DNA from: Streptomyces sp. McG3
GTDB taxonomy: Bacteria; Actinomycetota; Actinomycetes; Streptomycetales; Streptomycetaceae
Direction: 5' to 3'
Assembly (NCBI RefSeq): GCF_018619185.1
Contig: NZ_JAAXYC010000009.1
Coordinates: 1 to 64,000, forward strand
DNA: 64,000 nucleotides
In this document: piece after piece, positions 14,068 through 60,883 of the stretch
How positions within the stretch are numbered: the first letter of the stretch is position 1
How the letters are laid out: every line of letters starts with the position of its first letter
The notes under the pieces: generated by a model
What the model saw: the letters and a program-made list of their open reading frames with translations, nothing else
The model's database searches: none
Told to the model about the DNA's origin: nothing
Position numbers and translations under genes: made by a program

Positions 14068-14112
14068 CGTTCGGGACGAAGAGGTCGTGGGTTCAAATCC
14101 CGCCACCCCGAC
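14068..14112 (+). repeat. Attachment site copy 2 (junction of elements 1 and 2)
   Basis: 45 bp identical to the tRNA-Pro 3' part. Only 3' tRNA sequence is present, with no acceptor 5' half or D arm upstream, so it is not a tRNA gene. The 20 bp after it (starting AGCTGAAACACC) are shared with copies 3 and 4. Confidence 0.93.
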
Positions 14113-41107: not shown

Positions 41108-42564
41108 ACTGCGGAGCCTACGACAGCGGGAAACAAGTCAGCCACGAGTGCGTCGAGCTTTGCCTGCTCCGGGAGCCATTCCGGCGCGTTCTGCGCCAAG
41201 CGCACCAGGTCGTCACGGGAGGGGAAGGGGAGCATCTTGACGTCCCCGGCGTTGACCTGGGTGTGTCCGGAGAAGGTGCGGAAGATCGCGTCGAGCGTCG
41301 AGGAGTTCAGCCAGAGCATCAGCCCGTGCGCGAGCTGAGGGTCGATAGGCCCCTTCTTCTCGTGCAGGTAGTTGGTCTTGTTGTCTAGGGCAACCGGGCC
41401 GTCGTGCTTCCAGACGCCCGCGACCACGCGCCGCTTCTCCTCCTTGGCGGAGAAACGCTTGATGACGACGTAGCGCCCTTCGGGCAGGAGTAGTTTGCGG
41501 GCGGCCTCGGTGCTGGGGGAGAAGCCCTGTGGCTTCTTGGCGGGGCGCTGTGGCCACTCGATCTCTCCGCCGCGCACGTTGGCCTGGTAGACCATCGGCA
41601 CGACATTGTCGGCGCTAAGGTCCTCGGTCAAGTGTTCGCGGTTGCGGAAGTCGACGACCTTGCCCGTGCTGACGCCCAAGCCCAAGTCGGCCAAGGTAAA
41701 CGAGACGGCCGGCGGCACGACAGCGGAGTCATCGAAGCGGACGAACCGCTCGCGGTCCCCGGGCAGGACCACGGCGCCGAACGGGACGGTACGGCGCAGC
41801 GGGACGTCGTCGTGCGCGATCGACGCCGACAGGACGACCTCTGGCTGCTGGTCGCCTCGCGTGCCAGCCACGATGACGTTTTCCTGGAGGACTCCGGTGT
41901 CAGCAAAGACTGTGTTGCGGCTCTCAAAGACGTGTAGGAGGTCGAGGCTGGTGCGGTCGAGCATCCACTGGCGGAAGGCGCGATGGTAGGTGCCGTTGGC
42001 CCAGGAGCGGGGCACGATGATCGAGATCTGGCCGCCGGGGGCAAGAGCGGCTGTAGCCCTGGCCCAGAAGGCCGTGTAGATGTTGCTGGTATCGACCAGG
42101 ACGTGGGCTGTGTGCGTACGGTGCAGGCTGCCTGCGGCGAGCTTTCCGTAGGGTGGGTTGGCAACGACAAGGTCGAACGGCCTGTCAATGAGTGCGTCGT
42201 CGTCCGTGAGGTAGTCGCCCTGCACGAGGTCGAACGTGGTGCCGTAGGTTGCCCTGCATTCCTCGAGCGTGGTCCGCAGGTAGGGCGTGACCTGCGGGTC
42301 GGTCTCCACAGCAACGACGTGAACGTCCAGGTCAGGGCGGCCTTCGTGCAGTCGGGTCACCAGCGCGGCGGTCAGTGAGCCGACCCCGGCGCCAGGATCC
42401 AGAACGCGCACCGAACGGCTCAGGGCGTCTAGGCGAGGCATCGAGGCAATCAAGGCGGCGGCTGGTGCAGGGGTAAAGAACTGCCCCAGGGCGGCCTGGG
42501 TCCGAGGGGCAAGGAAACTGAGCGCCTCCACCCGTCGCGCCTCGGTGTTCTCGATCAGTTTCAC
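41104..42564 (-). CDS. N6-adenine DNA methyltransferase (PstI-type partner)
   Basis: 486 residues. SAM motif I LDPGAGVGSL near 54, catalytic motif IV VANPPYGKL near 138, and an N-terminal ARRVEALSFLAPRTQAALGQFFTP typical of gamma-class Eco57I/M.BsuBI enzymes. The C-terminal half is the target-recognition region. It protects DNA from the adjacent endonuclease and, as first gene of the pair, stabilises element 2 as a possible addiction module. No separate controller protein is seen. Confidence 0.88.
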   Translation of the reverse strand: MKLIENTEARRVEALSFLAPRTQAALGQFFTPAPAAALIASMPRLDALSRSVRVLDPGAGVGSLTAALVTRLHEGRPDLDVHVVAVETDPQVTPYLRTTLEECRATYGTTFDLVQGDYLTDDDALIDRPFDLVVANPPYGKLAAGSLHRTHTAHVLVDTSNIYTAFWARATAALAPGGQISIIVPRSWANGTYHRAFRQWMLDRTSLDLLHVFESRNTVFADTGVLQENVIVAGTRGDQQPEVVLSASIAHDDVPLRRTVPFGAVVLPGDRERFVRFDDSAVVPPAVSFTLADLGLGVSTGKVVDFRNREHLTEDLSADNVVPMVYQANVRGGEIEWPQRPAKKPQGFSPSTEAARKLLLPEGRYVVIKRFSAKEEKRRVVAGVWKHDGPVALDNKTNYLHEKKGPIDPQLAHGLMLWLNSSTLDAIFRTFSGHTQVNAGDVKMLPFPSRDDLVRLAQNAPEWLPEQAKLDALVADLFPAVVGSAV

Positions 42565-42807: not shown

Positions 42808-42904
42808 CCTTCGGAGGGCAACCGAACCCTCGTCACGCCACCTCAGACCAACGCCCTGACCTGCATGTTTGCAAGCTCCGCAGGTCTCGATCTTGCTCGA
42901 ACCT

Positions 42905-42949
42905 CGTTCGGGACGAAGAGGTCGTGGGTTCAAATCCCGCCACCCCGAC
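42905..42949 (+). repeat. Attachment site copy 3 (junction of elements 2 and 3)
   Basis: 45 bp identical to the tRNA-Pro 3' part, without the 5' half of a tRNA. Followed by the shared AGCTGAAACACCAGGTCAGG flank. Confidence 0.93.
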
Positions 42950-44633: not shown

Positions 44634-46355
44634 TCAGGCGTCAGCCCCGCCGAAGCGCTCGCGGTAGGACTCCAGGTCCTCCTCCGTGATCTTCGCGAAG
44701 AGCACCGGCGGCACGGTGAACGGCGTGCCGGCCGGGACAGCGTCCAGGGACTTCGTCTGCTCGGCGGTCACCCAGGTCGCGGTGTCGTTCTCCAAGGCGA
44801 AGGCCCCGCGCATGGCGGCGGCCGAGGCCGGGATGAACGGCTCGGAGACGACCGAGTAGAGGTGGATGAGGTTCATCGCCGTGCGCAGGGTCAGGGCCGC
44901 GCCGTCCGGGTCGGTCTTGATCTCCAACCAGGGGGCCTTCTCCTCCAGGTAGGAGTTGCCCGCCGACCACAGGGCACGCAGGGCGGCGCCGGCCTTGCGG
45001 TACTGGAGAGCGTCCATGTGCTCCTCGTACTCGGCCAGCAGCCGCGCGATCTCCTCGCCGAGCTTCGTCTCCGCCTCGCCGGCCACCGCGCCTGCGGGAA
45101 CCTCGTCGCCGAAGCGCTTGCGGGAGAAGGAGAGCACGCGGTTGACGAAGTTGCCGAGGGTGTCGGCCAAGTCCTTGTTGACTGTGGCGGCGAAGTGCTC
45201 CCAGGTGAAGGAGGAGTCATCCGACTCGGGGGCGTTGGCGATCAAGAAGTAGCGCCAGTAGTCGGCCGGGAGTGACTCCAGCGCGGCGTCGGTGAAGATG
45301 CCGCGCTTCTGGGAGGTGGAGAACTTGCCGCCGTAGTACGTGAGCCAGTTGAAGCCCTTGACGACGTCGACCTTCTTCCACGGCTCGCGGACACCGAGCT
45401 CCGTGGCCGGGAACATCACCGTGTGGAACGGGACGTTGTCCTTCGCCATGAACTGGGTGTAGCGGACGGTGTCGTCGGCCTCGTACCACCACGACTTCCA
45501 GTCGCGCCTCTCGCCGTTCGGGGCGGCGTCCGACCACTCCTTCGTCGCGCCGATGTACTCGATCGGGGCGTCGAACCAGACGTAGAAGACCTTGCCCTCG
45601 GCCGCCAGCTCCGGCCAGGTGTCCGCCGGGACCGGCACGCCCCAGTCCAGGTCGCGGGTGATCGCCCGGTCGTGCAGACCCTCGGTCAGCCACTTGCGGG
45701 CGATGGAGGACGACAGGTGCGGCCAGTCGGCCTCGTGCCGCGCCACCCACACCTCGACCTCGTGCTGGAGCTTCGACTGGAGCAGGAACAGGTGCTTGGT
45801 CTCGCGGACCTCCAGCTCCGTGGAGCCGCTGATCGCGGAGCGCGGGTCCAGCAGGTCGGTCGGGTCCAGGACGCGGGTGCAGTTTTCGCACTGGTCGCCG
45901 CGCGCCTTGTCGTAACCGCAGTGCGGGCAGGTCCCCTCGACGTACCGGTCAGGGAGGAAACGACCGTCGACCGGCGAGTACACCTGGCGGATCGCCCGCT
46001 CCTCGATGAAGCCGTTCTCGTTCAGCTGCCGCGCGAAGTGCTGGGTGATCTCGACGTTCTGCTGCGAAGAACTACGTCCGAAATAGTCAAAGGCCAGCTG
46101 GAAGCCGTCGTACACGGCCTTCTGCGCGTCGTGAGCCTGCGCGCAGAACTCCGCCACCGACGTGCCGGCCGCCTTGGCCGCCAGCTCGGCGGGCGTCCCG
46201 TGCTCGTCGGTCGCGCAGATGTACAGGACGTCGTGACCACGCTGGCGGAGGTACCGGGAGTACACGTCCGCCGGAAGCATCGACCCGACCATGTTGCCCA
46301 GGTGCTTGATCCCGTTGATGTAGGGAAGCGCGCTGGTTACCAGGTGTCGAGCCAT
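44634..46355 (-). CDS. metG: Methionyl-tRNA synthetase
   Basis: 573 residues, full length. HIGH region [15 protein letters not shown], zinc knuckle [17 protein letters not shown] near 140-156, KMSKS as KFSTSQKRG near 345 and the helical anticodon domain. It charges tRNA-Met in the cytosol. ATG at 46355 has GGAG nine bases upstream and gives the normal [20 protein letters not shown] start. It lies inside the att boundaries of element 3; whether the genome has another metG cannot be seen from here. No T-box-like leader was recognised upstream (46356-46795). Confidence 0.93.
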
Positions 46356-46795
46356 CCTTGGATGCTCCATTTCGTACGTTTGGCGCCTGGCGGCAGTGCC
46401 ACGGCGGACCGAAGTCGGGAGGGTGCAGCAGGCGCGACCGCGCAAGGTCGCTCAACCGTGTCACGCATGGTGACGGCCGGATCTGCAAGCCGCCGCAATC
46501 GTATGGCACCCGGGGGCCACTCCGCCGGGTCGTTTACCGGCGGCCGGGCTCGCGCGGAAAGGCGCTCGGCCGTCCGAGACAGGCGGCCAAGCAAGTCTCG
46601 AACGGCCGAGGCGGTCCTCATATTAGGCCCGTATGTCCGTGGTTACGCATCCCCCTCTTCATCCGAGGCCCAATAGGCGGTCCGTATGATCCGAGAACCA
46701 ACTTCCAGCAGGACCGTGTGCTCCCGATCGGACTTCACCCCTGCGATCGGGAAGTCCGGGTGCCTCGCGCCGCCCAGACTTCGCCTCGGCCCGTG

Positions 46796-49164: not shown

Positions 49165-49821
49165 TCACGGAGTGTCGAGATCTAGGTACGTATCCGTAGC
49201 GGGGTGGGGCCATGGGAGTTCTTCGTAGTCGATCACCTGCTGCGCGATGTGAGCCTTGGCCTCTATCGTTAGCTTTTCAATGTCATGAACGACACCACCA
49301 TGAGTGCGCCGACGCCCATCATGCACCGTGTCCCACTTACTCTTCTTGCTCTGGCGGGTCGTCGCCCCCTGCTCTTTGCTGCCGAAGCCCTTGAGCTTGC
49401 TGTTCCAGACTGGCGTGTATCCGACCCTCAGCGCGTTCTCCCCCAGATCGGCGTGAACGTCAGGCAGCAGGAGGGCCCGAAACCGGAACTCCACGATCGG
49501 CAGGCCGCCTTCCATGATCGACAGACGGTGTTGCTTAAGCCTGCTATGAAGGGGGTATCGCTCCCGAACCCTCTCCCCAGTAGCGCTGTTACTGGAAAGG
49601 GCCTGCCCCGCGTAAACGGGGATTTGGAGGCTGGCGAGCGGCAGATACATGTCCACGCTCGCACCGCGAAAGTACAGGGCATACAGCCCTGAACCCTCGA
49701 ACCTCGAGATCTCGTGGGTCATGGAGACCAGAGGTTGCCGCTCGAAGGTCTCGCAGATGGTGTTCGCGATCTGCTCGGTTGACAGAGGGTCGAACCACGC
49801 GGGGGCGTACTCGGCAGGCAT
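49165..49821 (-). CDS. Eco29kI-type restriction endonuclease
   Basis: 218 residues of the Eco29kI family, a GIY-YIG-like type II nuclease: ISRFEGSGLYALYFRG (GIY equivalent near 45), IPVYAGQAL (YIG equivalent), RLKQHRLSI, YTPVWNSKLKGFGSKEQGA and KWDTVHDGRR. Prototype enzymes cut CCGCGG. ATG at 49821 has AGGAAG upstream; the longer frame is a weaker choice. Divergent from the C5 methyltransferase at 50241, its likely partner. Confidence 0.82.
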   Translation of the reverse strand: MPAEYAPAWFDPLSTEQIANTICETFERQPLVSMTHEISRFEGSGLYALYFRGASVDMYLPLASLQIPVYAGQALSSNSATGERVRERYPLHSRLKQHRLSIMEGGLPIVEFRFRALLLPDVHADLGENALRVGYTPVWNSKLKGFGSKEQGATTRQSKKSKWDTVHDGRRRTHGGVVHDIEKLTIEAKAHIAQQVIDYEELPWPHPATDTYLDLDTP

Positions 49822-49919
49822 GGCTTCCTGATCGGTGATCGGCCCGTCTGCGGGAAGACCCCGCTGGAACGGACTAGGTCGACTACTACGTGTCCTGCTC
49901 ACCCGTCGGCACGAAGAGG

Positions 49920-50177
49920 TCATCCTCGGCGATCCCCCGGGCGGCGTCTCGGTAACTCTGCCAGACCGGCAGTACCGCCAGGCGCTCTTGTGCTCGCTCG
50001 GGAACTCCGGGTACCGAAAAGCCTCACTGCGCGGGCCAGTCGATCACCAAGGGCCTTGGTGATGCTCAGCCGAAAATCATCGTGGCGGGCGCCCGGGCCG
50101 ACCGACCTGGCCGCCTGCGCCATCCCCCTGACCCTCTCCGCCGTGTTGATCACCACGAACTCTATGGTCTTGCTCAC
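49920..50177 (-). CDS. Possible small protein between R and M genes
   Basis: 85 residues from GTG 50177. The first half (KTIEFVVINTAERVRGMAQAARS...DDFRLSITKALGDRLARAV) reads like a real protein, the second half does not. It could be a small regulator of the R-M pair or a decayed fragment. No family recognised and no clear ribosome site. Confidence 0.3.
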   Translation of the reverse strand: MSKTIEFVVINTAERVRGMAQAARSVGPGARHDDFRLSITKALGDRLARAVRLFGTRSSRASTRAPGGTAGLAELPRRRPGDRRG

Positions 50178-50240
50178 TTTTAGGCGACCCGTTCGAGTGA
50201 TGGTTCGCCATGATCACCAACTCCGCGGTATGGTTTCGCC

Positions 50241-51593
50241 ATGGTTGACCTGCCTGAAGAAGCGAAGAAGCAGCGGACCAGCGTTGAACTGTTCGCGGGT
50301 GGAGGCGGCCTTGCCATGGCGGTCCACCAAGCAGGCTTCCGCCCGCTCCTGTTCAACGAGTTCAACAACCGCGCCTGCGAGACACTCATCTCGAGTGCGC
50401 GAAAGACCCTCGGTGTCGACGGCTTGAAGCGCACCGAGGAGAAGAAGCCTCAGCCGCCAAAACCGGGGCAGCCCGCCCCCCTCTATCCGGGCGACGTGCG
50501 CGACCTGGACTTCAGCGCCTTCCAGGGCGAGGTCGATGTCCTGGCAGGAGGCCCTCCGTGCCAGCCGTTCAGCGCCGGCGGGGTCGCCAAGGGCGATGAA
50601 GACAAGCGCAACATGTTCCCGGCCATGTTCAAGGCAGTGCAAGAGATGCGGCCGAAGGTGGTTATCTGCGAAAACGTCCGCGGACTCCTGCGGCCGTCTT
50701 TCGTCGACTATTTCCAGTACATCCAGAACGAGCTGAGTCTCCCGTTCGAGAAGCGCGACGATGAGGTCAAGTGGCAGGATCACAACGCTGACCTGACGCG
50801 CATTCTCGATCAACTATCTGACGACGACAGCAACCCGGATCACTACAGAGTCGTGATGGTGCCGGTCAACGCCGCCAGCTATGGCGTCCCGCAGGTACGC
50901 AACCGGGTCGTAATCGTAGCCTTCCGAGCCGACCTCGGCGTGGACGTCGACGGCTTCGAGAAGTACGTGAAAACGGAGAGATTCTCCGAGGCGGCCCTGT
51001 TCCGGTCCATGCGCGACGAGGACGGACCCTACTGGAAGCGCCACCCAACCGTAGAGGACCACGTTCGCGACCGAGTGCGTGCGCGTCTCCCGAAGGTGAT
51101 CAAGGAAGACGACTGCCAGCCGTGGCGCACAATGCGCGACGCCATTCAGGGACACGGCACGGACGTGAAACTCCCGGCACTCCCCCCTGTCGATAGGAAC
51201 CGACTTTCGGAGAAGTTCGACTTCGGTGAAGAGATCGGAGCCGTCGGTCACGTCGGTTGGCCTGGAGCCCGTATCTACAAGGGGCACACCCCGAACGAAC
51301 TCGATCGTCCCGCGAAAACGGTCAAGGCCGGCGTTCACGGCGTGCCAGGCGGCGAGTCCGTGATGCTGCTGGACGAGCGGGTCCGCGACGTCTCAGCACC
51401 GGGTGGTTTTACCTACTTGCACCGCTACATGACCGTGCGCGAGACCGCCCGGGTAATGACGTTCCCGGATGAATGGCATGGCTCAGGCCCTCGAGGCGAG
51501 CAAATGCGGCAGTTGGGCAACGCCGTGCCGGTCGCTCTCGGTGAGTTCTTCGCCAAGGCCGTCTCCGATGCCCTGGCTGCGGCGGGACACTAG
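50241..51593 (+). CDS. dcm: C5-cytosine DNA methyltransferase
   Basis: 450 residues with all key motifs: I VELFAGGGGLAMA near 15, IV GGPPCQPFSAGG near 105 with the catalytic Cys, VI ENVRG near 135, VIII QVRNRVVIVAF near 220 and X QLGNAVPVALG near 420. It methylates cytosine and should protect the site of the divergent Eco29kI-like nuclease. A Vsr-type repair gene follows 4 bp downstream, as expected since 5-methylcytosine deaminates to T. Confidence 0.93.
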   Translation: MVDLPEEAKKQRTSVELFAGGGGLAMAVHQAGFRPLLFNEFNNRACETLISSARKTLGVDGLKRTEEKKPQPPKPGQPAPLYPGDVRDLDFSAFQGEVDVLAGGPPCQPFSAGGVAKGDEDKRNMFPAMFKAVQEMRPKVVICENVRGLLRPSFVDYFQYIQNELSLPFEKRDDEVKWQDHNADLTRILDQLSDDDSNPDHYRVVMVPVNAASYGVPQVRNRVVIVAFRADLGVDVDGFEKYVKTERFSEAALFRSMRDEDGPYWKRHPTVEDHVRDRVRARLPKVIKEDDCQPWRTMRDAIQGHGTDVKLPALPPVDRNRLSEKFDFGEEIGAVGHVGWPGARIYKGHTPNELDRPAKTVKAGVHGVPGGESVMLLDERVRDVSAPGGFTYLHRYMTVRETARVMTFPDEWHGSGPRGEQMRQLGNAVPVALGEFFAKAVSDALAAAGH

Positions 51594-51597
51594 CTTC

Positions 51598-52395
51598 ATG
51601 CCGCAGACAGGGGTCGGGGGGCGCTGGAAGGACAGGCTGCCTCCGGAACGCGCGTATAAGCGTCGAGCTGGCGCGGCCGCGCCAGCAGTTGAGCAAGACC
51701 GCGCCGCCGGCGGTCGCAATCGGCGCAACGTCGACCTGGGTGACGGGCGTCTCGCACGCGCCTCCGTCACACTCCGCCTCTACCGGAGTACACGTCGCGT
51801 TCGCGCATATCTACGGTGGTCACAAAACGGCAAGACTGAGGAGCGCTACGTCTGCGAAGTCGAGTTCGACTCACGCAAGCAGAACCTTGCTGAGGCATGG
51901 CGACAAGCCCGAACAAAGGGGCTCTTGGCGCAAGAGACGCTGCCGCCCGAGTCGACCGCGTCGTCGCTCGAGGTTCGAGCCTCGATGCGCGGCAACCGCG
52001 GCAAGGACACCAAACCAGAACTGCTGCTCCGCAGGCTGCTCCATCGCCGCGGCGTGCGCTACCGGGTCGACGCCCGGCCAATCGCCGACGTCCGGCGGAG
52101 AGCCGACCTCGTGTTCCCCGGCGATCGCATCGCGGTATTCGTGGATGGCTGCTTCTGGCATGGCTGCCCGGACCATTACAGGCCCGCAACGAAGAACGCA
52201 GACTTCTGGCGGGAAAAGATCAACCGCAACAGGGCGAGGGACACTCAGACCAACGACACCCTGACGGCGGCTGGTTGGACAGTCATCCGAGTTTGGGAGC
52301 ACGACGACCTCGCCCGAGCAGCGACCCGAATCGAGAACGCCGTCCGGCGAAAGCGCGGTGCAGCGCATCTCGTCGCTACAGCGGGCGACCATTGA
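51598..52395 (+). CDS. vsr: Very-short-patch repair endonuclease (Vsr)
   Basis: 265 residues; the C-terminal 140 are Vsr: SMRGNRGKDTKPELLLRRLLH, RRADLVFPGDRIAVFVDGCFWHGCP (catalytic Asp and zinc ligands), the KNADFW segment, RNRARD and VIRVWEHDD. It nicks at T:G mismatches left by deaminated 5-methylcytosine. The first 120 residues are an extra Arg-rich domain with a RVRAYLRWSQNGKTEERYVCEVEF beta segment, unusual for Vsr (about 140-150 residues). ATG at 51598 follows the methyltransferase stop closely. Confidence 0.88.
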   Translation: MPQTGVGGRWKDRLPPERAYKRRAGAAAPAVEQDRAAGGRNRRNVDLGDGRLARASVTLRLYRSTRRVRAYLRWSQNGKTEERYVCEVEFDSRKQNLAEAWRQARTKGLLAQETLPPESTASSLEVRASMRGNRGKDTKPELLLRRLLHRRGVRYRVDARPIADVRRRADLVFPGDRIAVFVDGCFWHGCPDHYRPATKNADFWREKINRNRARDTQTNDTLTAAGWTVIRVWEHDDLARAATRIENAVRRKRGAAHLVATAGDH

Positions 52396-52564: not shown

Positions 52565-52859
52565 GACGCCAGTCTTCCATGCGTGGTGGAGGAAAGATCA
52601 GGCGCAAAAGCGCACTGCAGCAAGTGAGTCAGCTTGCCACGCGGTCTGAACCGACACGAAGATGACGACTGCGGCCTGGGCCGAGGCGCGGCCGCGGCCG
52701 CTGGTGGAGGTACGACCGCCACCAGCCGGATGGATGCGCGTCATTATCTTCGGCAAGGGCCTCGATGCGCGTGGCAGAGAAAACCCTCCGGTCCCTGCTG
52801 CACAGACAGCATCTACGCCACCACGTCTCTGCGGCTCCCGTGCCGACACTGCGCCGGAC

Positions 52860-53062
52860 GCGGATCTCGTCTCGAGGGCCCGAGTCCCGGTCTTGATGGA
52901 CAGCTGTCATTGGCATGTCCGTCAGCGTCTACGGCCAGCGGCGAACGTCAGGAATTTTGGCGAGACACGACCATCGCGAACGGAATCCCGGACGCCGAGC
53001 GGCGGAAACATCCCGCGGTTCTGGGAACACGAAAATCTGAGGCTGCCGCGGAACGCGCCGTG
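52860..53062 (+). pseudogene. Decayed second vsr fragment
   Basis: In two neighbouring frames this region resembles the Vsr core: DSCHWH, a QEFWRD segment and RFWEHENL lie in the same order and spacing as CFWHGC, ADFWRE and RVWEHD in the intact gene. Frame changes and loss of the start make it a relic. The rest of 52565-53346 has no gene that can be supported. Confidence 0.5.
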
Positions 53063-53346: not shown

Positions 53347-55689
53347 GTGAAAATCACCCCTTCCGCCCGCGTACTGAGCATGCTGGGCGAGATCGATTTC
53401 GATGAGTGGCAGTGCGTGGCCGAGCTCGTCGACAACCCCTTCGACGACTTCCTCGACATCCTTCGCTCGGGGACGGAATGGCCGGACGGCTTCACCGTCA
53501 GCGTGACCCTGCCATCGTCCGCGAAAGGGGTCTTGGAGGTCCGTGATACCGGGCGGGGCATGTCGTACGACCGGCTGGCGCGTGCGGTGCGAGCCGGTTG
53601 GTCCGGGAACGACAAGCACGACAAGCTCGGCCTGTTCGGTATGGGCTTCAACATCTCGACTGCCCGCCTCGGCAGGCGCACCCGCATCCTTACAACGCGA
53701 GCTGGCGACACGGAATGGATCGGCGTCGAGATCGACCTCGACCAGATCAAGGATGACTTCGAAGCGAAGGACATCACTGAGTCGAAGAGCGACCCGTCTC
53801 ATCACGGCACGCGGATCATCGTCGACCGTCTGCAGCCGACGCGTGCCGAGTGGCTGCGTCGCAATGGCGCCTCGCTCCGCAACACTCTGGGCTCGGTGTA
53901 CTCATGGATCCTGACCGAGCGGCCCTTCGAACTCTACGTCGGCGGAACCCGGGTCAAGCCAGTCCGCCACTGCCGCTGGGGCGACGACCGTTACGTGCTC
54001 TACAACGGCAAGGAACAGATCCCCGCCTACATCCCCATCGACGCGAAGCTCCAGGACGGGACCGCCTGCCAGGACTGCGGGGAGTGGCAGATTGGTGTGG
54101 GTGAGGTCTGCTCGGTCTGCGGCAGCGGCAACCTGACGGTGCGCGAACGCCGGATCCACGGCTGGCTTGGCGTCCAGCGCTATCTCGACAAGACCGAGTA
54201 CGGGATCGACTTCCTGCGTAATGGCCGGAAGATCCTTCGCTGGGACAAGCGGGTCTTCACCTGGAACAACCCCCACGGGCGCGAGGGCGAGGAGGAGGAG
54301 CCTGAGTATCCGGTCGAACTCGCCCACCAAGGCGGCCGCCTTATCGGCGAGATCCACCTTGACCACGTCCCCGTCATGTACCAGAAGGACGCTTTCGAGT
54401 ACGGGGACCCCAGCTGGCTCGCAGCTGTAGAGCTGCTGCGCGGCGTGGCGCCACTGCAGCCAAAGCGCGCACCGGCCTACCCGGAGAACGAGAGTCCACT
54501 GGCCCTGCTGTTCAAGGGCTTTCGCCGCAACGACGCGGGCCTGCGCTGTCTCGTTCCGGGCGACGGCCAGAAGCCGGTCCATACAGATACCCGGAACTGG
54601 GGTCGGAAGTTCCAGGCCGGCGCCGCCGAGTTCCAGTCCGACGAACACTGGTGGCAGGCGGTTCTGCGGCACGAGGAAATCAAGAAGCGAGGCAAGGAAG
54701 CCAAGACGGCGGCCAGTGTGCCGGCCCAGCCCGACGAGCAGGCCGTCAAAGACGCGCTTGGCTTCCCGATCGACATGCCTACCTCCGGCACGGCTGTCGG
54801 GCCGGTGGGTGCGCCCACCACCTTCAGCACCACTGCTGTGGCGGTGAAGGAGGAGAAGGAGACCCGCAGCGAGCGCCTGGCCCGTTACGAGAGTGCGGCG
54901 TCGCCGCACTCCTACCTGAGCCGGCCGTTCGGCCACCCCGAACTCGGTTACGTGAAAGTCCGGACCCTTCTGCTGAAGCCGGGCGATCCGCTCCTCGACG
55001 ACCGTGGGCTGTCCGTCCCGGTCCTCCTCGACCAGCGATCGGGCAACGAGGTCACCGCCCTCGTCGATCCCGAGCACTCCGCATTCAGGCGGTTCGGCAC
55101 GGACTACGCCGATCTCCTCCTGGTCGAACTGGCCGCTGTCCTGAAAGTTCGGGCGCGCTCTGACTGGAGCCCGTCCCAGCTCGTCGCCGCGATCCGCGCC
55201 GAGTCCCTGCAAGACAGCGTGCTCGACGGCACCACGGTTGGCGCGGAGGGCCGTGATCTCCTCACGGAGATCCGTGCGCGTGTGGCCGAGGCCATCGACC
55301 GGAACGACATCGATTGCCCTACCTCCTACGATCACCTCTCCGACGAAGAGAAGGTCGCGACCGAGGAGGCGATGATCGCCGCCGGACGCGTCGGCCTCGT
55401 CGGCCGTCTCGGTCGGGACTCCGGTTTTGTCCACCACATGCCCGCCTTGGCCTTGGTCCGGCTCGTCCAGGCAATGCCGCAGTCGTTCATGGACGGTGCC
55501 GTCTTCCGTGGCCCGTACGCTGGGGTGTCGTCGCCGTCCGGGAAGGCGCTGAGTCTGGCCCGGGTCACGGGCTGCCTCGCGGACGTGGCGACGCTCGGCA
55601 CGTTCGCGGGCGGGGCGACCACTCAGCAGCTGCGGCGGGGCCGCCTAAGCATCGCCTTGCTGCGCGACGAACTGGCGGGCGAAGGGTGA
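53347..55689 (+). CDS. GHKL (MORC/MutL-like) ATPase with zinc ribbon
   Basis: 780 residues. Bergerat ATP site: N-box ELVDNPFDD (26-34), G1 DTGRGMS near 67, G2 GLFGMGFN near 95. A zinc ribbon CQDCGEW...CSVCGSG lies near 240-260 and a charged helical region (HEEIKKRGKEAKTAA) near 440. Bacterial GHKL ATPases of this kind accompany helicases, nucleases and methylases in predicted restriction-like systems. GTG at 53347 has AGGAGGG upstream. It starts a six-gene operon whose next start overlaps its stop. Confidence 0.85.
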   Translation: MKITPSARVLSMLGEIDFDEWQCVAELVDNPFDDFLDILRSGTEWPDGFTVSVTLPSSAKGVLEVRDTGRGMSYDRLARAVRAGWSGNDKHDKLGLFGMGFNISTARLGRRTRILTTRAGDTEWIGVEIDLDQIKDDFEAKDITESKSDPSHHGTRIIVDRLQPTRAEWLRRNGASLRNTLGSVYSWILTERPFELYVGGTRVKPVRHCRWGDDRYVLYNGKEQIPAYIPIDAKLQDGTACQDCGEWQIGVGEVCSVCGSGNLTVRERRIHGWLGVQRYLDKTEYGIDFLRNGRKILRWDKRVFTWNNPHGREGEEEEPEYPVELAHQGGRLIGEIHLDHVPVMYQKDAFEYGDPSWLAAVELLRGVAPLQPKRAPAYPENESPLALLFKGFRRNDAGLRCLVPGDGQKPVHTDTRNWGRKFQAGAAEFQSDEHWWQAVLRHEEIKKRGKEAKTAASVPAQPDEQAVKDALGFPIDMPTSGTAVGPVGAPTTFSTTAVAVKEEKETRSERLARYESAASPHSYLSRPFGHPELGYVKVRTLLLKPGDPLLDDRGLSVPVLLDQRSGNEVTALVDPEHSAFRRFGTDYADLLLVELAAVLKVRARSDWSPSQLVAAIRAESLQDSVLDGTTVGAEGRDLLTEIRARVAEAIDRNDIDCPTSYDHLSDEEKVATEEAMIAAGRVGLVGRLGRDSGFVHHMPALALVRLVQAMPQSFMDGAVFRGPYAGVSSPSGKALSLARVTGCLADVATLGTFAGGATTQQLRRGRLSIALLRDELAGEG

Positions 55690-57350
55690 GCGCCGCATTC
55701 CTGGCGGCCGCCGAACTGCGCGACGGCGGCCCGGAGGGACTGACCAAGGCGCTCGAACGGACCCTGTGGCATCTCGGCTTCCAGGACGTCCGCGTGATCG
55801 ACGGCGCTCACGACCATGGCGCCGACCTGCTCGCGGTCCGCACCCGCGAGCAGTGGGTGTTCCAGAGCAAGTGGAAGGCGCACGGCCCGGCCGACCACGC
55901 GGGCGTCGACGACCTCGAACGCGCGCGCACCCACTACCGGGCTGACAAGGCCGTGTTGGTGACCAACACGGACATCACCGCTTCGGCCAAGGCGCGGCGC
56001 CAGGCGCTGGCGGACATCGGTATCGACATCGCCCTTTGGCACGGGGCCACCCTGGACGCGATCGGTCAGAGGATGCCCGATCGCGTGCCCGCTCCCTACT
56101 CCCTGCGGCCATACCAGGAACAGGCCGTGACCGCGATCGAGCGGGACCTCGACACTGAGGGAACGGCGATGCTGATCCTGGCGACAGGACTGGGAAAGAC
56201 AGTCGTCGGCGGCGAGGTCATCGGGAACTTGCTGGCGTCGCGGCCGAACGCGCGCGTCCTGGTCGTCGCTCACATGCGCGACCTGGTCGGACAGCTGGAG
56301 AAGGCATTGTGGCGGCACCTGCCAAAGAGTGTTCCCACCCGTCTCCTGACCGGCGAGAGCAAGCCCCGGGACCTCAACGGCGTCGTAGTGGCGACGGTCG
56401 AGTCGGCGCTGGCCGCTGTACGCGTGGGATACAAACCCGACCTCATCATGATCGACGAGACCCATCACGTGGCCGAGACCGGCAGGTTTGCGGAGCTCCT
56501 CGATCTGTGCGGGACTGCGGGGCAATTTGGAGTCACCGCCACTCCTTGGCGTGGCGACAAGTTCGATATCACGGCTCGCTTCGGCCCCCCCAGCTTCAAG
56601 ATGGGCATTGCCGAGGGCATGGCGGCGGGCTACCTGTCAGCCGTCGATTACAAGCTGTACGCGGATGGCGTGGACTGGGACGCCGTCCAGGACACTAGCC
56701 GTCACGGCTACTCCATCAAGGATTTGAACCGTCGATTGTTCCTTCCCCAGCGGGACGAGGAGATCGTCGAGCACCTGCGGACGGCCTGGCGAGAGACCGC
56801 CGAGCCCCGCGCCATCTTGTTCTGTCAGACCATCGAGCACGCCGAGCACATGGCCGGCCTCCTCGCCGTCTCGGACCCGGCGTGGGCCAACGCCTCCCAC
56901 CTGCACAGCGGTCTGCCGAAGCGTCACCGTGACGTCCTGCTCAACGAGTTCCGCCTCGGCCGCGTCCCAGTGATCACCTGTGTCGACGTGTTCAACGAAG
57001 GCGTCGACGTGCCCGACGTGAACCTGATCGCCTTCCTACGCGTCACCCACAGCCGAAGGATCTTCGTGCAGCAGCTCGGCCGGGGGCTGCGTCTGAGCCC
57101 CGGCAAGAAGGCTCTGAAGGTCCTCGACTTCGTGACCGACATCCGTCGCGCCGCGGCGGTACTGAACCTGCGCCGGACGCTAGAGGCCGAGGAGACCGAG
57201 CATCTGGAACTCCCGCGCGTATCCCGGATCGAGTTCCAAGACGAGACGGTCGGCTCATTGATGGACATGTGGATCCAAGACGCCGCCGACCTCGAGACCG
57301 CAGCGGACGAGGTCCGCCTCCAGTTCCCCCTGCCGAAAGGAATTCTGTGA
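55686..57350 (+). CDS. Mrr-like nuclease fused to SF2 helicase
   Basis: 554 residues. N-terminal restriction-endonuclease-like domain (about 1-120): LWHLGFQDVRVIDGAHDHGADLLAV and WVFQSKWK give the D...QxK catalytic set. A DEAD/H helicase follows with Q-like RPYQEQAV, Walker A ATGLGKTVV near 170, DETH in IMIDETHHV near 255, TATPWRGD and the arginine-finger motif QQLGRGLRLS near 465. It should translocate on and cleave foreign DNA with the GHKL ATPase. GTG at 55686 overlaps the previous stop; its own stop overlaps the next start. Confidence 0.88.
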   Translation: MSAAFLAAAELRDGGPEGLTKALERTLWHLGFQDVRVIDGAHDHGADLLAVRTREQWVFQSKWKAHGPADHAGVDDLERARTHYRADKAVLVTNTDITASAKARRQALADIGIDIALWHGATLDAIGQRMPDRVPAPYSLRPYQEQAVTAIERDLDTEGTAMLILATGLGKTVVGGEVIGNLLASRPNARVLVVAHMRDLVGQLEKALWRHLPKSVPTRLLTGESKPRDLNGVVVATVESALAAVRVGYKPDLIMIDETHHVAETGRFAELLDLCGTAGQFGVTATPWRGDKFDITARFGPPSFKMGIAEGMAAGYLSAVDYKLYADGVDWDAVQDTSRHGYSIKDLNRRLFLPQRDEEIVEHLRTAWRETAEPRAILFCQTIEHAEHMAGLLAVSDPAWANASHLHSGLPKRHRDVLLNEFRLGRVPVITCVDVFNEGVDVPDVNLIAFLRVTHSRRIFVQQLGRGLRLSPGKKALKVLDFVTDIRRAAAVLNLRRTLEAEETEHLELPRVSRIEFQDETVGSLMDMWIQDAADLETAADEVRLQFPLPKGIL

Positions 57351-57946
57351 CCGACTACAAGATCCCGCCCGCCGTCGAGAAGGCCGTGGTCACACGGATC
57401 TACACCCAGGCCGACGAGGCACGGTGGCCACACCTCCAGGACGCGGACCGCACCCGCCTCTATCGGGAGTGGACGGAGGACCCGGAGATCGGCGGCCGTC
57501 TCCTCAACTTCGTGGAACAGCGGGCGAACATCCGCCCGTGGCTGAAGGACTGCCCGATGAAGGAGTACGAGCGGGCACGACGAGGAGAGGGCAAGTACGC
57601 CAAGTACGTGTCGCGTCCAGCCGCGACGCTTGAGCAGATGGTTGCAGTAACCCTCGGCCCTGATTGGGAGGTCATCCCGGGGACCATCCAACAGAAGCCG
57701 ATGCGAACCAAGATCCGCGAGGTGGGCACAGAGGACGAGGAGCGGCACTTCGTGGCCGGCACGGCGGCGAATCTCAAGCACCTCGTGTGGCCTGCGGTGC
57801 TCGACCGGTCCAACGGGGAGACCTGGCCCTGGACGATCTGCGTCGTCGATCCGTTCCGCGCCCCTGTGCCGCCCGAGAAGAAGGAAGAACACCGGCGCGT
57901 AGCCGAGTTCCTCGGCGTGCGGGTCGTCTATTTCAACGAGATGTAG
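57347..57946 (+). CDS. Unknown protein of the GHKL-helicase operon
   Basis: 199 residues, not recognised. Charged N-terminal half (KAVVTRIYTQADEARWPHLQDADRT, YREWTEDPEIGGRLLNFVEQRANIRPWLKDC), then LEQMVAVTLGPDWEVIPGTIQQK and a C-terminal strand WTICVVDPFRAPVPPEKKEEHRRVAEFLGVRVVYF. The alternating D, E and K residues in the last 60 could hide a nuclease fold, but no canonical motif is visible. GTG at 57347 has AAAGGA upstream and overlaps the helicase stop. Confidence 0.7.
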   Translation: MTDYKIPPAVEKAVVTRIYTQADEARWPHLQDADRTRLYREWTEDPEIGGRLLNFVEQRANIRPWLKDCPMKEYERARRGEGKYAKYVSRPAATLEQMVAVTLGPDWEVIPGTIQQKPMRTKIREVGTEDEERHFVAGTAANLKHLVWPAVLDRSNGETWPWTICVVDPFRAPVPPEKKEEHRRVAEFLGVRVVYFNEM

Positions 57947-57954
57947 GGGGACCG

Positions 57955-59307
57955 ATGGGGGACGAGTGGCCTATGGGCGAGTGGCTTGTCAGGGCGTGGG
58001 AAACCGGGGTCGTCGACGAGCGTGAGCGGACGGTCATTACGGGCCGGGCCGAAGGGCGAACGCTGGACATGATCGGAGCAACGCTCGGGCTGACCCGCGA
58101 GCGCGCGCGTCAGATCCAGAACCAGGCGCGGAGGCGGCTCTCGGAGATGGCGGACATCGTCCAGGACGGTTGGCGGGAGACAACCCACGCTGCGGGCACG
58201 GGGCCGGCCACCCCGCGAGCAGCCTTCGCCGCCGCGCTTGGGGTCGTCGACCACGTGGCGCTGGAGGAGCTGCTAGCCGCAGCGGGGCTGGACGTGCCTC
58301 GCACGTGGGCGGGACCCTTGCGCGGCTGGTGGAGTGCAGACCCCGGCGCGCTGGACGGCGCGCTGCGCCGTCTCGTCGACACCGCTCCCTTCTGCGGCGA
58401 CGACCTCGGCCGGGCGGCCTCCGAAGCTGGACTGCCCGCAGGTCTCCCCCTGGCCTGGCTCCTGAGCCACTCCGAGTCGCGGCTCGCCCTGAGCTCCGAC
58501 AGGCACTGGGTGCGCCGCAAAGCGCGGGGACGCGACGCCGCGTACCTGTGGCTGCTGGAGGCCGGGCGCCCGTGTCGGGCCGACGAGCTGCTCACCCCGA
58601 TGGCCGCGACGACCGTCGCGGCCGTGCGGGAGGCGCTGCGCCGTGATGACCGGTTCCGGCAGATCCGCCCCGAGAGCACCTGGGCCCTGGCCGAGTGGAC
58701 GCATCTGCAAGCGTCCACGTACGCCACTGCGGTGGAGGCGATGATCGCGGTAGTCACCGAGTCGGGCCCTCTATCGCGTGCACGGCTCTTCGCCAGGGTG
58801 ACAGAGCTGTACCCGGTTACCCCGTGGCGCCTGAAGCAGTGCCTGCTCAGTAACCAGCTCGGTGAGACCTCTGACGGCCTCGTCGACCTCGTCTCCCGCG
58901 GTGCCCGCCCCTTCGAGGAAGAGGAACCCACCCGACCGGACACAATGGCCGTTGAAGGCGAGGTCCTCGGTGTGCGGATCCCCGTGAACCGGGACATCTT
59001 GCGCGGCAGCGGCGTCAACGTGCACACCTGGCTGACTTGGCGGCTCGGGCTGCGACAGGCCCCGACGAGCCGCACGTTCACGACGCCCGGCGACCACTCG
59101 CCGCTCGTCGTCCGCCGCCGCACCGGCAGCGCCCAGCTCTCCAGCCTCCGCCGCCACGCGCTCGAACTCAAGGTCGTCGATGGCTGCGTACTTGCCGTCC
59201 TCCTCCGCCTCGACGACGGCACCGCACGCGTCGGACACGGCTGCGCGCCGGACACCTGCCCGGCACGGAAGAAACAGGCAGCGACGCCGTCGACGTCGAA
59301 CGTCTGA
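57955..59307 (+). CDS. Sigma-70 region-4-like HTH protein of the defence operon
   Basis: 450 residues. The N-terminal HTH (ERERTVITGRAEGRTLDMIGATLGLTRERARQIQNQARRRL, about 22-60) is a clear sigma-70 region 4 type. The middle has repeated winged-helix-like segments (AYLWLLEAGRPCRADELLTPMAATTVAAVREALRRDDRFRQI) as in DNA-binding recruiters. No sigma region 2 is present, so it is not a complete sigma factor; it more likely binds DNA for the system or controls it. ATG at 57955 is 8 bp after the previous stop with AGGGGGA upstream. Confidence 0.75.
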   Translation: MGDEWPMGEWLVRAWETGVVDERERTVITGRAEGRTLDMIGATLGLTRERARQIQNQARRRLSEMADIVQDGWRETTHAAGTGPATPRAAFAAALGVVDHVALEELLAAAGLDVPRTWAGPLRGWWSADPGALDGALRRLVDTAPFCGDDLGRAASEAGLPAGLPLAWLLSHSESRLALSSDRHWVRRKARGRDAAYLWLLEAGRPCRADELLTPMAATTVAAVREALRRDDRFRQIRPESTWALAEWTHLQASTYATAVEAMIAVVTESGPLSRARLFARVTELYPVTPWRLKQCLLSNQLGETSDGLVDLVSRGARPFEEEEPTRPDTMAVEGEVLGVRIPVNRDILRGSGVNVHTWLTWRLGLRQAPTSRTFTTPGDHSPLVVRRRTGSAQLSSLRRHALELKVVDGCVLAVLLRLDDGTARVGHGCAPDTCPARKKQAATPSTSNV

Positions 59308-59402
59308 TGCGCCGATGACCGCACCCCCGCGAAGTGGCAAAGCGCCAGAAGGGTCATAGACCGAGCAGTTGCCCCAAAGCGGCTCTCAATGACGAGGGAA
59401 AC

Positions 59403-59963
59403 ATGAATCAACTCGAACTGCGCGGCGTAGAGCACCAGCTCCGCGAAGCGCTACAAGACACTGCCCTGAGTTGGGTGCTCGACGATGTCGACGCGGCAAT
59501 CGCCGCAGGAGTGCCCGAGGAGAAGATCCTCCGCCGACGCCAGCAGCGCCGCGGTGATGACTCCCCTGCCGCGAGCCCGGCCGCAGCAGCAGCTCGATAC
59601 GAGGTCGTGGACCGCAGCGTGCTCGGCCTCGGCGAGTACGAGGCATCGCGCAAGCGGGGGACGCTGGTCATCGCCACGCGATCCATGACGGATGAGGAGC
59701 GCGTCCAGCTCCTCCTGGATGCCGTGAGGCGAGTTCTCGTTGAACTGCCTGAAATTGAACTGGAGGTGCTGAAGACGCTCCGGACCGAGCCCGAGGGTGA
59801 CACTGGCAGCCGGAGCATCGGCGAAGCGGTCGTGTTCGAGCCGGACGAAAGCGCTCGATCGCGACGTAGTCGAACAGATTTTCAGGGAAATCGGATGCCG
59901 ACAGAACGACGTATCCACGTCAGCCAACTGCTCGCCGACGTGACGAGGGAGCTTGTCAGGTGA
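59403..59963 (+). CDS. Unknown protein of the GHKL-helicase operon
   Basis: 186 residues, not recognised. A helical N-terminus (VEHQLREALQDTALSWVLDDVDAAI), an Ala/Pro-rich linker and a second half GTLVIATRSMTDEERVQLLLDAVRRVLVELPEIELEVLKTL. The stop overlaps the next start by 4 bp, so the pair is coupled. ATG at 59403 follows GAGGG. Confidence 0.65.
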   Translation: MNQLELRGVEHQLREALQDTALSWVLDDVDAAIAAGVPEEKILRRRQQRRGDDSPAASPAAAAARYEVVDRSVLGLGEYEASRKRGTLVIATRSMTDEERVQLLLDAVRRVLVELPEIELEVLKTLRTEPEGDTGSRSIGEAVVFEPDESARSRRSRTDFQGNRMPTERRIHVSQLLADVTRELVR

Positions 59964-60640
59964 GTACGGTCGACCGCCTAGTCAACGAGATCAAGAGCCT
60001 GCTGGCGGCAGGGGCGGTGTCATACGACTCTGCTTCGAAGCCGTCCGACGTCTATGAGGGCTTCATCTTCTCCCTAATCGTCGCCACTGCCAGTCGGCAC
60101 GGTGCCAATGTCACCTACGAAGACGTGTACGGGGTGAAGGCCAGCAGCCTTGTCTTCCGAACGGGGCCCGGCCACCTGTACAGCAAAAGCCAGCCCTTCA
60201 CTCACGCTGTGATCGAGTTCGACGGCGCTCCCGCCCTTGAAGTCCACCTCGGCGTCTACGTGACCGGCTCGTCGGGCGTCCTGCACGAGTGCGATGTGCT
60301 GGTGTTGCCAGCCGAGGAAGCCGCCCTGAGCCGGGCACAGGGCATCGCACCACGAGGCAGTCAGAGCGTGCTCGTCGTCGAGTGCAAGTACTACGTCTCC
60401 AACCTCGGCATCGGTCTCGCGCGGAACTTCGAGGGACTACGCGCCGACATTCGCACCCAGAACGAACTCTTCGTCGCTAACACCAGATCATCGAGCATCG
60501 TGCGGTACCTCGATGCCCGAAAGAGAGGTTTCGAGCCGGACGTAGTACCCAACTCCCCGCAGGCAGGCTATCTGCAGGCGGAGATCAGGAAGACCTTCAA
60601 GAGCTACCTGAGCAAGCACTCACCCTCAACGGTGATCTGA
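59960..60640 (+). CDS. PD-(D/E)XK-like nuclease of the defence operon
   Basis: 226 residues. HAVIEFDGAPALEVHLGVYVTGSSGVLHECDVLVL followed by QSVLVVECKYYVS (near 140) gives the E...D...ECK arrangement of the PD-(D/E)XK fold. N-terminal helices (STVDRLVNEIKSLLAAGAVSYD) precede it. It likely cuts DNA once the system is triggered. GTG at 59960 overlaps the previous gene; it is the last gene before the element end. Confidence 0.78.
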   Translation: MSTVDRLVNEIKSLLAAGAVSYDSASKPSDVYEGFIFSLIVATASRHGANVTYEDVYGVKASSLVFRTGPGHLYSKSQPFTHAVIEFDGAPALEVHLGVYVTGSSGVLHECDVLVLPAEEAALSRAQGIAPRGSQSVLVVECKYYVSNLGIGLARNFEGLRADIRTQNELFVANTRSSSIVRYLDARKRGFEPDVVPNSPQAGYLQAEIRKTFKSYLSKHSPSTVI

Positions 60641-60840: not shown

Positions 60841-60883
60841 TTCGGGACGAAGAGGTCGTGGGTTCAAATCCCGCCACCCCGAC
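60841..60883 (+). repeat. Attachment site copy 4 (right end of the array)
   Basis: 43 bp identical to the tRNA-Pro 3' part; the two bases before it differ (CA for CG). Followed by the common AGCTGAAACACCAGGTCAGG flank, so this is probably the original chromosomal downstream side. Confidence 0.92.

What the first reader, a model, noticed from the sequence alone, without database searches (positions are those of the whole stretch)
53347..60640. Six-gene GHKL ATPase / Mrr-helicase operon, candidate new defence system
GHKL ATPase with zinc ribbon, Mrr-type nuclease fused to SF2 helicase, unknown, sigma-region-4 HTH protein, unknown, and a PD-(D/E)XK-like nuclease overlap or nearly touch. GHKL ATPases with helicases and nucleases are known from predicted MORC/MutL-linked restriction systems, but the sigma-like HTH protein and the two unknown proteins do not match a system I can name.
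Basis: partly seen in the sequence, partly recalled or inferred. Interest (0 to 1): 0.85.

Follow-up and report, generated by a model that had tools for sequence, protein, structure and literature searches.

The report
MORC-type restriction-modification locus with passenger genes
The six genes are not one new system: four are the ATP-driven half of a predicted but, as far as I could find, untested restriction-modification system whose methylase, repair nuclease and cutting enzyme lie just upstream, the last two are an unrelated neighbouring pair, and the locus brings to light an unannotated protein family and a sigma-like protein that is probably a DNA reader.

Summary
The six ORFs are real and close-packed, but not one six-gene system. 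In 58 of 61 related genome loci with enough flank (chosen by the ATPase gene), the conserved unit is C5-methyltransferase + Vsr + MORC-like GHKL ATPase + Mrr-helicase + a ~200-aa protein, P3. In the window the methyltransferase, Vsr and an Eco29kI-type GIY-YIG enzyme lie at 49165-52395, outside the finding. The sigma-like gene occurs in about half the loci. Its model is HTH, winged helix and a B3-like domain, with no sigma region 2 detected: a DNA-recognition protein is likelier than a sigma factor. The last two genes are an independent pair: 9 of 295 genus genomes, 7 of them without an ATPase match. All lie in an 18-kb segment bounded by tRNA-Pro-end repeats.

This is a MORC-type R-M operon of the class predicted by Iyer et al. 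2008 (PMC2292703). New here: P3, an unannotated family with a PD-(D/E)XK-like fold lacking catalytic residues, also fused to PIN_8 and to a kinase; the B3 reading of the sigma-like protein; loose coupling of methylase and ATPase module. Best mechanism: ATP-dependent, target-directed restriction of unmodified DNA, inferred and untested. New variant of a known kind.

The parts
49165..49923 (-). Eco29kI-family GIY-YIG restriction endonuclease, 252 aa, divergent from the methyltransferase
   Evidence: Pfam RE_Eco29kI 1e-26; counterparts of all six R.Eco29kI active-site residues listed in the PMC1952068 abstract seen by eye, with R-x3-H and E-x11-N spacing kept; the spacing of the two tyrosines differs
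50241..51593 (+). C5-cytosine DNA methyltransferase, 450 aa
   Evidence: Pfam DNA_methylase 2e-47; family present in 60 of 61 well-flanked loci
51598..52395 (+). Vsr endonuclease with a ~120-150 aa N-terminal extension, 265 aa
   Evidence: TIGR00632 vsr 6.5e-36; extended ORF recurs in a 57-locus cluster; start codon from the bases printed
53347..55689 (+). MORC-like GHKL ATPase with zinc ribbon, 780 aa
   Evidence: HATPase_c_3; best PDB profile hits MORC3 (1.9e-8) and MORC4 (1.5e-5); ATP-binding boxes conserved in 101 rows, ribbon cysteines in 93-95 of 101
55686..57350 (+). Mrr nuclease fused to SF2 helicase, 554 aa
   Evidence: Mrr_cat, ResIII, Helicase_C; Mrr D, Q, K and the key Walker A and DExH residues invariant in 97 of 97
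57347..57946 (+). P3, unannotated 199-aa family: helical N-domain with R-x-W-[IL]-K-D-x3-K-x3-R, plus PD-(D/E)XK-like C-domain without catalytic D/ExK
   Evidence: 60 of 61 loci; AF2 pLDDT 93.8; fold matches; column counts in 65 members
57955..59307 (+). Sigma-region-4-like HTH + winged helix + B3-like domain, 450 aa; probable DNA-recognition protein, clade-specific
   Evidence: Sigma70_r4; AF2 pLDDT 90.8; B3 and winged-helix matches; 30 hits in 61 loci, one a genuine sigma factor (L093) and one a fragment (L068)
59403..59963 (+). P5, unknown 186 aa; part of an independent pair, not of the system
   Evidence: 9 of 295 genus genomes, each time beside P6; 7 of the 9 have no ATPase match
59960..60640 (+). 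P6, putative PD-(D/E)XK nuclease (D..ECK by eye), 226 aa; partner of P5, not of the system
   Evidence: 18 of 295 genus genomes, 9 of them at 62% identity or more
42904..42949 (+). 46-nt exact copy of the tRNA-Pro 3' end (att-like scar)
60841..60883 (+). 43-nt exact copy of the tRNA-Pro 3' end (att-like scar) closing the segment
   Evidence: its core also follows the operon in L037, L039 and L040, but was not found in L023, L036 or L042

Best explanation
A MORC-type restriction-modification locus carried in a segment bounded by integration scars. Shown by sequence: the gene set, conserved catalytic motifs of the ATPase, helicase and Mrr nuclease, and co-inheritance of the ATPase, helicase, P3 and HTH-B3 genes. 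Inferred: the C5-methyltransferase marks self DNA; Vsr repairs T:G mismatches left by 5mC deamination; the Eco29kI-type enzyme, where present, cuts unmodified sites (CCGCGG for R.Eco29kI itself). The MORC-like ATPase, Mrr-helicase and P3 form a second, ATP-dependent restriction arm. The HTH-winged helix-B3 protein and/or P3 recognise DNA, the MORC dimer clamps or loops it, the helicase remodels or translocates, and the Mrr domain cuts. P5-P6 is a passenger pair.
For: Five core families in 58 of 61 well-flanked loci. Methyltransferase, ATPase, helicase and P3 also on 4 of 5 plasmid hits, Vsr on 2 of those 4. In 295 genus genomes P3 is in all 12 with full-length ATPase plus helicase, and in one other. 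Rank correlations of distances: ATPase-helicase 0.92, ATPase-P3 0.90, ATPase-sigma-like 0.89, against methyltransferase-ATPase 0.32 and Eco29kI 0.04-0.24. Mrr D/Q/K and helicase key residues 97 of 97. B3-like domain. CglI/NgoAVII (C5-methyltransferase, B3-domain R protein, SF2 ATPase) is a worked precedent. DISARM-like DrmA/DrmB relatives next door in 7 loci.
Against: No experiment. The Eco29kI-type gene (28 of 61) and the sigma-like gene (28 of 61 after dropping a true sigma factor and a fragment) are each missing from about half the loci, so neither can be essential to the class. Loose methyltransferase coupling is not uniform: within the sigma-like set it follows the ATPase at rho 0.70 (n 31), and in 27 loci with Vsr rows at Pearson 0.87. 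CCGCGG depletion does not separate loci with the Eco29kI gene (0.76) from those without (0.77) or from control loci (0.80). The B3-like domain shows only a weak extra correlation with the methyltransferase (partial rho 0.37, no significance test). P3 and B3 assignments rest on fold models with Z about 8, near the level of common arrangements.
Confidence: 0.6

Rival explanations
1. The ATPase-helicase-P3 arm is a MutL-like partner of Vsr: it processes T:G mismatch nicks at methylated sites and protects the host from 5mC deamination, while the Eco29kI-type enzyme does all the restriction.
For: Vsr is in 58 of 61 loci and tied to the methyltransferase (rho 0.63, n 27). The ATPase is MORC/MutL-like. 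P3's top fold match is the mismatch nuclease EndoMS (Z 8.2).
Against: 33 of 61 loci have no Eco29kI-type gene by HMM, so they would have no recognised type II restriction enzyme of that kind (other enzyme types were not sought). Mrr nuclease residues are invariant. Vsr and ATPase correlate at only 0.47 (n 30).
Confidence: 0.15
2. Type IV-like arm: the Mrr-helicase with MORC attacks DNA bearing foreign modification, complementing the type II enzyme that attacks unmodified DNA.
For: Mrr_cat domain; best PADLOC model for the helicase is mREase_IV (3e-34, matching the helicase part); across all loci the ATPase module is loosely coupled to the methyltransferase.
Against: A C5-methyltransferase is in 60 of 61 loci, which a purely modification-directed enzyme would not need. 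The PADLOC match does not cover the nuclease.
Confidence: 0.2
3. The sigma-like gene is a transcription regulator of the locus, not a subunit of the restriction complex.
For: Sigma70_r4 HTH in 23 of 24 members and a winged helix, common in regulators.
Against: No sigma region 2 among the Pfam matches listed. The gene is about 450 aa, ends in a B3-like domain, sits in the operon and co-evolves with helicase and ATPase (0.93, 0.89; n 33), less with P3 (0.77).
Confidence: 0.3
4. The six genes form one functional defence system.
For: They are co-oriented and close-packed in the window, and the same six occur in two other genomes, L039 and L040.
Against: P5-P6 in only 2 of 61 well-flanked loci; the pair stands without an ATPase match in 7 of 9 genomes; in L037 the operon ends at the sigma-like gene and the att core follows.
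Confidence: 0.03

Closest known systems
MORC/paraMORC restriction-modification operons (Iyer, Abhiman, Aravind 2008, PMC2292703; text parts 1-3 of 4 read)
   Same: GHKL ATPase beside an SF2 helicase carrying a RE-fold nuclease, with cytosine methylase and Vsr; mobile and patchy.
   Different: The text I read does not describe P3, the HTH-B3 protein or Eco29kI-type enzymes (its figures were not seen and may show them); the strict MORC motif is met in only 2 of 99 sequences here.
MZA (mzaABCDE; Gao 2020, not read; seen through passages of PMC9523054 and NCBIfam models)
   Same: A sigma-like protein plus a MutL-like ATPase in a multi-gene defence operon.
   Different: No MzaC, MzaD or MzaE model matches among the rows shown; MzaB and MzaA matches are far below cutoff (15.6 of 850 bits; 12.2 of 800).
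CglI / NgoAVII (PMC4267653, passages)
   Same: C5-methyltransferase, SF2 ATPase and a B3-domain DNA reader; ATP hydrolysis is required for cleavage.
   Different: There the nuclease is a PLD domain in the same protein as B3, the ATPase carries a Z1 domain, and the three-gene systems have no GHKL ATPase; here Mrr is fused to the helicase and the B3-like domain to HTH and winged helix.
Eco29kI R-M (PMC1952068, abstract)
   Same: GIY-YIG restriction enzyme; pairing with a C5-methyltransferase is recalled.
   Different: Here joined to Vsr and a MORC-like ATPase-helicase module; cleavage site untested.
VcSduA (Shedu with GHKL domain; PMC12137116, passages)
   Same: GHKL ATPase coupled to a PD-(D/E)XK nuclease in phage defence.
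   Different: Single protein with a DUF4263 nuclease domain.

Membership tests
MORC-type R-M operon (Iyer 2008) | GHKL ATPase with intact ATP-binding boxes | tested here: met
   E, D, N of the N-box, D and second G of box 1 and the glycines of box 2 in 101 of 101 rows; first G of box 1 in 97 of 101
MORC-type R-M operon (Iyer 2008) | Neighbouring SF2 helicase with RE-fold nuclease | tested here: met
   61 of 61 well-flanked loci; Mrr_cat + ResIII in the window protein
MORC-type R-M operon (Iyer 2008) | Cytosine methylase and Vsr in the neighbourhood | tested here: met
   60 and 58 of 61
MORC family proper (ATPase) | S5 motif GhXhhpXXRhl | tested here: inconclusive
   Strict form in 2 of 99 ORFs of 600 aa or more; with the tenth position free (usually K) 98 of 99; best PDB profile hit MORC3, 1.9e-8
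MZA | MzaA-MzaE all present above NCBIfam cutoffs | tested here: not met
   Only sub-threshold MzaA and MzaB matches among the nine window proteins scanned; no MzaC, D or E among the rows shown (best 25 per protein; the helicase had 34)
Sigma factor (57955-59307) | Sigma region 2 for core RNA polymerase binding | tested here: not met
   Region 4 and generic HTH models, no region 2 model, among the 17 Pfam families matched by 24 members
B3 DNA-binding domain (57955-59307, residues 334-433) | B3 fold | tested here: inconclusive
   Foldseek probability up to 1.00, TM-score by target 0.60 to VAL1 B3; VIA Z 8.3, 3.2 A over 99 residues to ARF1; no B3 family match by sequence
Active PD-(D/E)XK nuclease (P3) | Catalytic D and ExK in the core strands | tested here: not met
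   No conserved D or ExK in residues 119-139 of 65 members; the fold itself is supported but near background (EndoMS Z 8.2, 3.0 A over 93)
Eco29kI-type restriction endonuclease (49165-49923) | GIY-YIG active-site residues | tested here: met
   Pfam 1e-26; residue list of PMC1952068 compared by eye
Eco29kI-type restriction endonuclease (49165-49923) | Cleaves CCGCGG | not testable with these tools
   Site depletion not diagnostic
   P5 and P6 in 2 of 61 loci; 7 of 9 genomes with the pair have no ATPase match

The most novel reading that the evidence does not exclude
An ATP-dependent restriction machine driven by a bacterial MORC-like ATPase and aimed by a sigma-like HTH-winged helix-B3 reader, in which P3, a dead-nuclease domain, is the adaptor that tells foreign from self DNA. 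The same P3 domain is re-used with other effectors (PIN_8 nuclease and a protein kinase), making P3 a general, unrecognised sensing or docking domain of bacterial immunity.
Probability: 0.25. Interest if true: 0.8.

Novelty: new variant of a known kind. Interest (0 to 1): 0.52.

Why it matters
Bacterial MORC operons were predicted to be restriction systems in 2008. The searches made here (titles and abstract openings seen) listed no experimental test of one with this gene set. This locus gives a clear core gene set, an unannotated family (P3) present in nearly every locus of this ATPase, and a plausible DNA reader. It makes the question 'what does a MORC ATPase do in restriction, and by extension in eukaryotic silencing' testable with five or six genes. 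It also shows how a segment between integration scars can make an unrelated gene pair look like part of one operon.

Tried and rejected
Six-gene unit: rejected on co-occurrence. Sigma factor: rejected, region 4 only. MZA: rejected, models below cutoff. CCGCGG avoidance as proof of specificity: observed/expected 0.64 in the window, 0.76 in 26 loci with a strong Eco29kI hit, 0.77 in 54 without, 0.80 in ten control loci; not diagnostic. B3-methyltransferase co-evolution: weak. P3 against viral fold models: no match at E 0.001. PDB sequence search with P3: best E 0.06, not meaningful. In P3's fold list rows 1-6 (Z 6.3-8.2) stand above the first Ras-like row (5.5); rows 7-9 are tied with it, and I read the Ras-like rows as a shared alpha/beta arrangement. 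YprA/DISARM preprint passages: Vsr domains there are fused to YprA helicases, a different system.

Limits. The 80 genome loci are the best 80 of 263 by ATPase similarity, so presence counts hold for that set; 19 of the 80 were left out of the 61 for short flanks. Dropped before the distance counts: short matches, and Eco29kI hits weaker than 1e-15, which left 22 Eco29kI and 30 Vsr rows. With that stricter cutoff Eco29kI is in 24 of the 61 instead of 28. Low methyltransferase-ATPase correlation can also come from a slowly evolving methyltransferase: mean distance is 0.47 against 0.57, and of 4005 pairs 685 are close in methyltransferase and far in ATPase but only 6 the reverse. The neighbour clusters contain antisense and frame-shifted ORFs; only clusters annotated, plus the Vsr extension, are used. 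No correction for shared ancestry was made in any correlation.
Full report
Observation. The finding's six ORFs exist on the + strand and are tightly packed. With refined starts they are: GHKL ATPase 53347-55689, Mrr-helicase 55686-57350, P3 57347-57946, sigma-like 57955-59307, P5 59403-59963 and P6 59960-60640. The longest gap, 95 nt, falls between the sigma-like gene and P5. HMM scans confirm the GHKL, Mrr/helicase and Sigma70_r4 calls. P3 and P5 match nothing at E up to 1 in Pfam, NCBIfam and PADLOC, and P6 only at chance level; PHROGs gives none for P3, P5 or P6 at 0.01.

What lies upstream. A C5-methyltransferase (50241-51593) and a Vsr endonuclease (51598-52395, with an N-terminal extension) read in the same direction, and an Eco29kI-family GIY-YIG enzyme (49165-49923) is divergent. 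Its sequence keeps counterparts of the six active-site residues listed for R.Eco29kI (PMC1952068 abstract), compared by eye. This is an ordinary type II modification half that the finding left out.

The conserved unit. An ATPase profile found 263 relatives in genome contigs; the best 80 were kept. Of the 61 with at least 4.5 kb on both sides, 60 have the methyltransferase, 58 Vsr, 61 the Mrr-helicase, 60 P3, 28 an Eco29kI-type gene (24 at E below 1e-15), 30 a sigma-like hit and 2 P5-P6; 58 have all five core families. Of the 30 sigma-like hits one is a genuine sigma factor (L093) and one a fragment (L068). By record titles the 80 loci are mostly Actinomycetota, with single loci labelled Myxococcales, delta proteobacterium, spirochete and Chloroflexi, three of these four from records named MAG. 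Five plasmids have an ATPase match. Four of them (Ruegeria, Rhodococcus, Pseudosulfitobacter, Deinococcus) carry methyltransferase, ATPase, helicase and P3, and two of the four (Ruegeria, Rhodococcus) also Vsr; the fifth, Streptomyces cathayae, has the GHKL gene alone. Viral contigs gave 18 loci; of the 8 with full flanks 4 hold all five families.

Genus-level control. In 295 genomes of the window's genus the ATPase is in 14 (15 matches). Twelve genomes have a full-length copy with helicase and P3; the three shorter matches (one in a genome that also has a full copy) have neither. P3 is in 13: those twelve plus one. The sigma-like protein is full-length in 4, all with the ATPase; two further weak matches cover only the HTH. 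P6 is in 18, nine of them at 62% identity or more; P5 is in those same nine, beside P6 each time. Only two of the nine (the window's own genome and G187) have an ATPase match. In the other seven, 12-14.5 kb around the pair holds none of the core genes apart from one weak partial Vsr match in L172. P5-P6 is therefore an independent pair.

Why they sit together. The 3' end of the window's one tRNA gene (tRNA-Pro, 792-866) recurs exactly at 14068-14112, 42904-42949 and 60841-60883. I read this as three tandem integrated segments. The whole R-M locus and P5-P6 lie in the third. In L037 (Streptomyces radiopugnans) the operon ends at the sigma-like gene and the same att core follows; in L039 and L040 P5-P6 stands between them, as in the window. 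The core was not found in L023, L036 or L042.

Modules. Rank correlations of pairwise protein distances are 0.92 for ATPase-helicase (n 97), 0.90 for ATPase-P3 (n 93), 0.89 for ATPase-sigma-like and 0.93 for helicase-sigma-like (n 33), 0.77 for P3-sigma-like (n 32), 0.32 for methyltransferase-ATPase (n 90), 0.63 for methyltransferase-Vsr (n 27), 0.47 for Vsr-ATPase (n 30) and 0.04-0.24 for Eco29kI against the others that could be computed (n 10-22). Outside the sigma-like set the contrast is sharper: methyltransferase-ATPase 0.21 (n 58), P3-ATPase 0.88 (n 56), helicase-ATPase 0.93 (n 57). Against it: inside the sigma-like set the methyltransferase follows the ATPase at 0.70 (n 31) and the sigma-like protein at 0.75 (n 32), and in the 27 loci with Vsr rows its Pearson values with ATPase, helicase and P3 are 0.80-0.87. 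So ATPase, helicase and P3 travel together, and methylase and endonuclease are coupled to them loosely across clades but not within the sigma-like one. Example: L027 shares 72-78% identity with the window in methyltransferase, Vsr and Eco29kI but 36% in the ATPase, 54% in the helicase and 32% in P3. Exchange is the likelier reading, slow methylase evolution the alternative.

The proteins. The ATPase profile's best solved relatives are MORC3 (1.9e-8) and MORC4 (1.5e-5), ahead of Hsp90-type proteins. The MORC S5 motif is strict in 2 of 99 and complete except for one position in 98 of 99, so I call it MORC-like. ATP-binding boxes, Mrr D/Q/K and the key Walker A and DExH residues are conserved almost without exception. 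P3 models at pLDDT 93.8: a helical part with the conserved R-x-W-[IL]-K-D-x3-K-x3-R segment, then residues 93-199 in a PD-(D/E)XK-like fold. The top six fold rows are EndoMS (twice; Z 8.2 and 7.1), a CdiA toxin domain, two XisH-family proteins and AF2093 (Z 6.3-6.9); that these are PD-(D/E)XK relatives is from recall. The next rows, PaqCI and a CRISPR-activated nuclease, are tied with the first Ras-like row at 5.5. The catalytic D and ExK are not conserved in 65 members. P3-like domains also occur C-terminal to PIN_8 in second genes of L098, L103 and L048 and C-terminal to a protein kinase domain (Pkinase 1e-27) in G213, where no core gene was found in the 11.9-kb piece fetched. The sigma-like protein models at pLDDT 90.8: sigma-4-type HTH, a winged helix at 190-250 (Z up to 8.4 for rows confined there), probably a second at about 253-315 (one FOXP3 row, Z 7.2), and a B3-like domain at 334-433 (Z 8.3 to ARF1; Foldseek probability up to 1.00). 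In CglI and NgoAVII only the B3-bearing protein binds the target specifically, and a partner SF2 ATPase must hydrolyse ATP for cleavage (PMC4267653 passages).

Mechanism. The best reading is a self-marking C5-methyltransferase with Vsr repair, an optional type II enzyme, and an ATP-dependent restriction arm made of MORC-like ATPase, Mrr-helicase and P3, aimed in this clade by the HTH-B3 protein. Gene set, motifs and co-inheritance are shown; complex formation, target choice and cleavage are inferred. Rivals are a MutL-like repair partner for Vsr and a type IV arm against modified DNA.

Known or new. Iyer et al. 2008 (PMC2292703, text parts 1-3 of 4 read) predicted MORC R-M operons with Rad25-like helicases bearing RE-fold nucleases, cytosine methylases and Vsr; this locus fits that class. 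Related reports seen in passages: PMC8011034, PMC9523054 on MZA-like systems, PMC12137116. Searches listed no paper that I could recognise as naming this gene set (most listings seen as titles and abstract openings only); most subscription papers are not held. Verdict: a new variant of a known kind, with P3 and the HTH-B3 protein as the parts worth following.

Noticed in passing
792-866, 14068-14112, 42904-42949, 60841-60883: Exact repeats of the tRNA-Pro 3' end suggest three tandem integrated segments; a phage-type integrase (950-2161, -) sits beside the tRNA and a relaxase (21760-23454, +) in the second segment.
   Followed up: partly
40151-42564: A second R-M pair, BsuBI/PstI-type endonuclease and Eco57I-like N6 methylase, at the end of the second segment.
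   Followed up: no
44634-46445: A methionyl-tRNA synthetase gene inside the third att-bounded segment; whether the genome has another copy was not checked.
   Followed up: no
52839-53039: Weak Vsr-like stretch in the 951-nt gap before the ATPase gene (E 7e-5); L064 and L076 have two Vsr ORFs in tandem there, so this may be the remnant of a second copy.
   Followed up: no
51598-52395: Vsr carries an N-terminal extension with no convincing family match; the extended ORF recurs in a cluster of 57 loci.
   Followed up: partly
L098:15113-16219, L103:14989-16224, L048:5488-6699, L188:6680-7240: P3-like domains in second genes fused to PIN_8 nuclease domains and, in G213, to a protein kinase with no ATPase gene in the piece fetched.
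   Followed up: partly
L093, L095, L099, L100, L102, L108, L113: DISARM-like DrmA and DrmB relatives lie within 4 kb of the MORC locus in seven loci, nearly all on the opposite strand to the ATPase; one representative of each was identified by family scan, the rest by clustering.
   Followed up: no
59403-60640: P5-P6 pair, in 9 of 295 genus genomes and in 7 of those without the ATPase: a candidate two-gene unit with a putative PD-(D/E)XK nuclease.
   Followed up: partly
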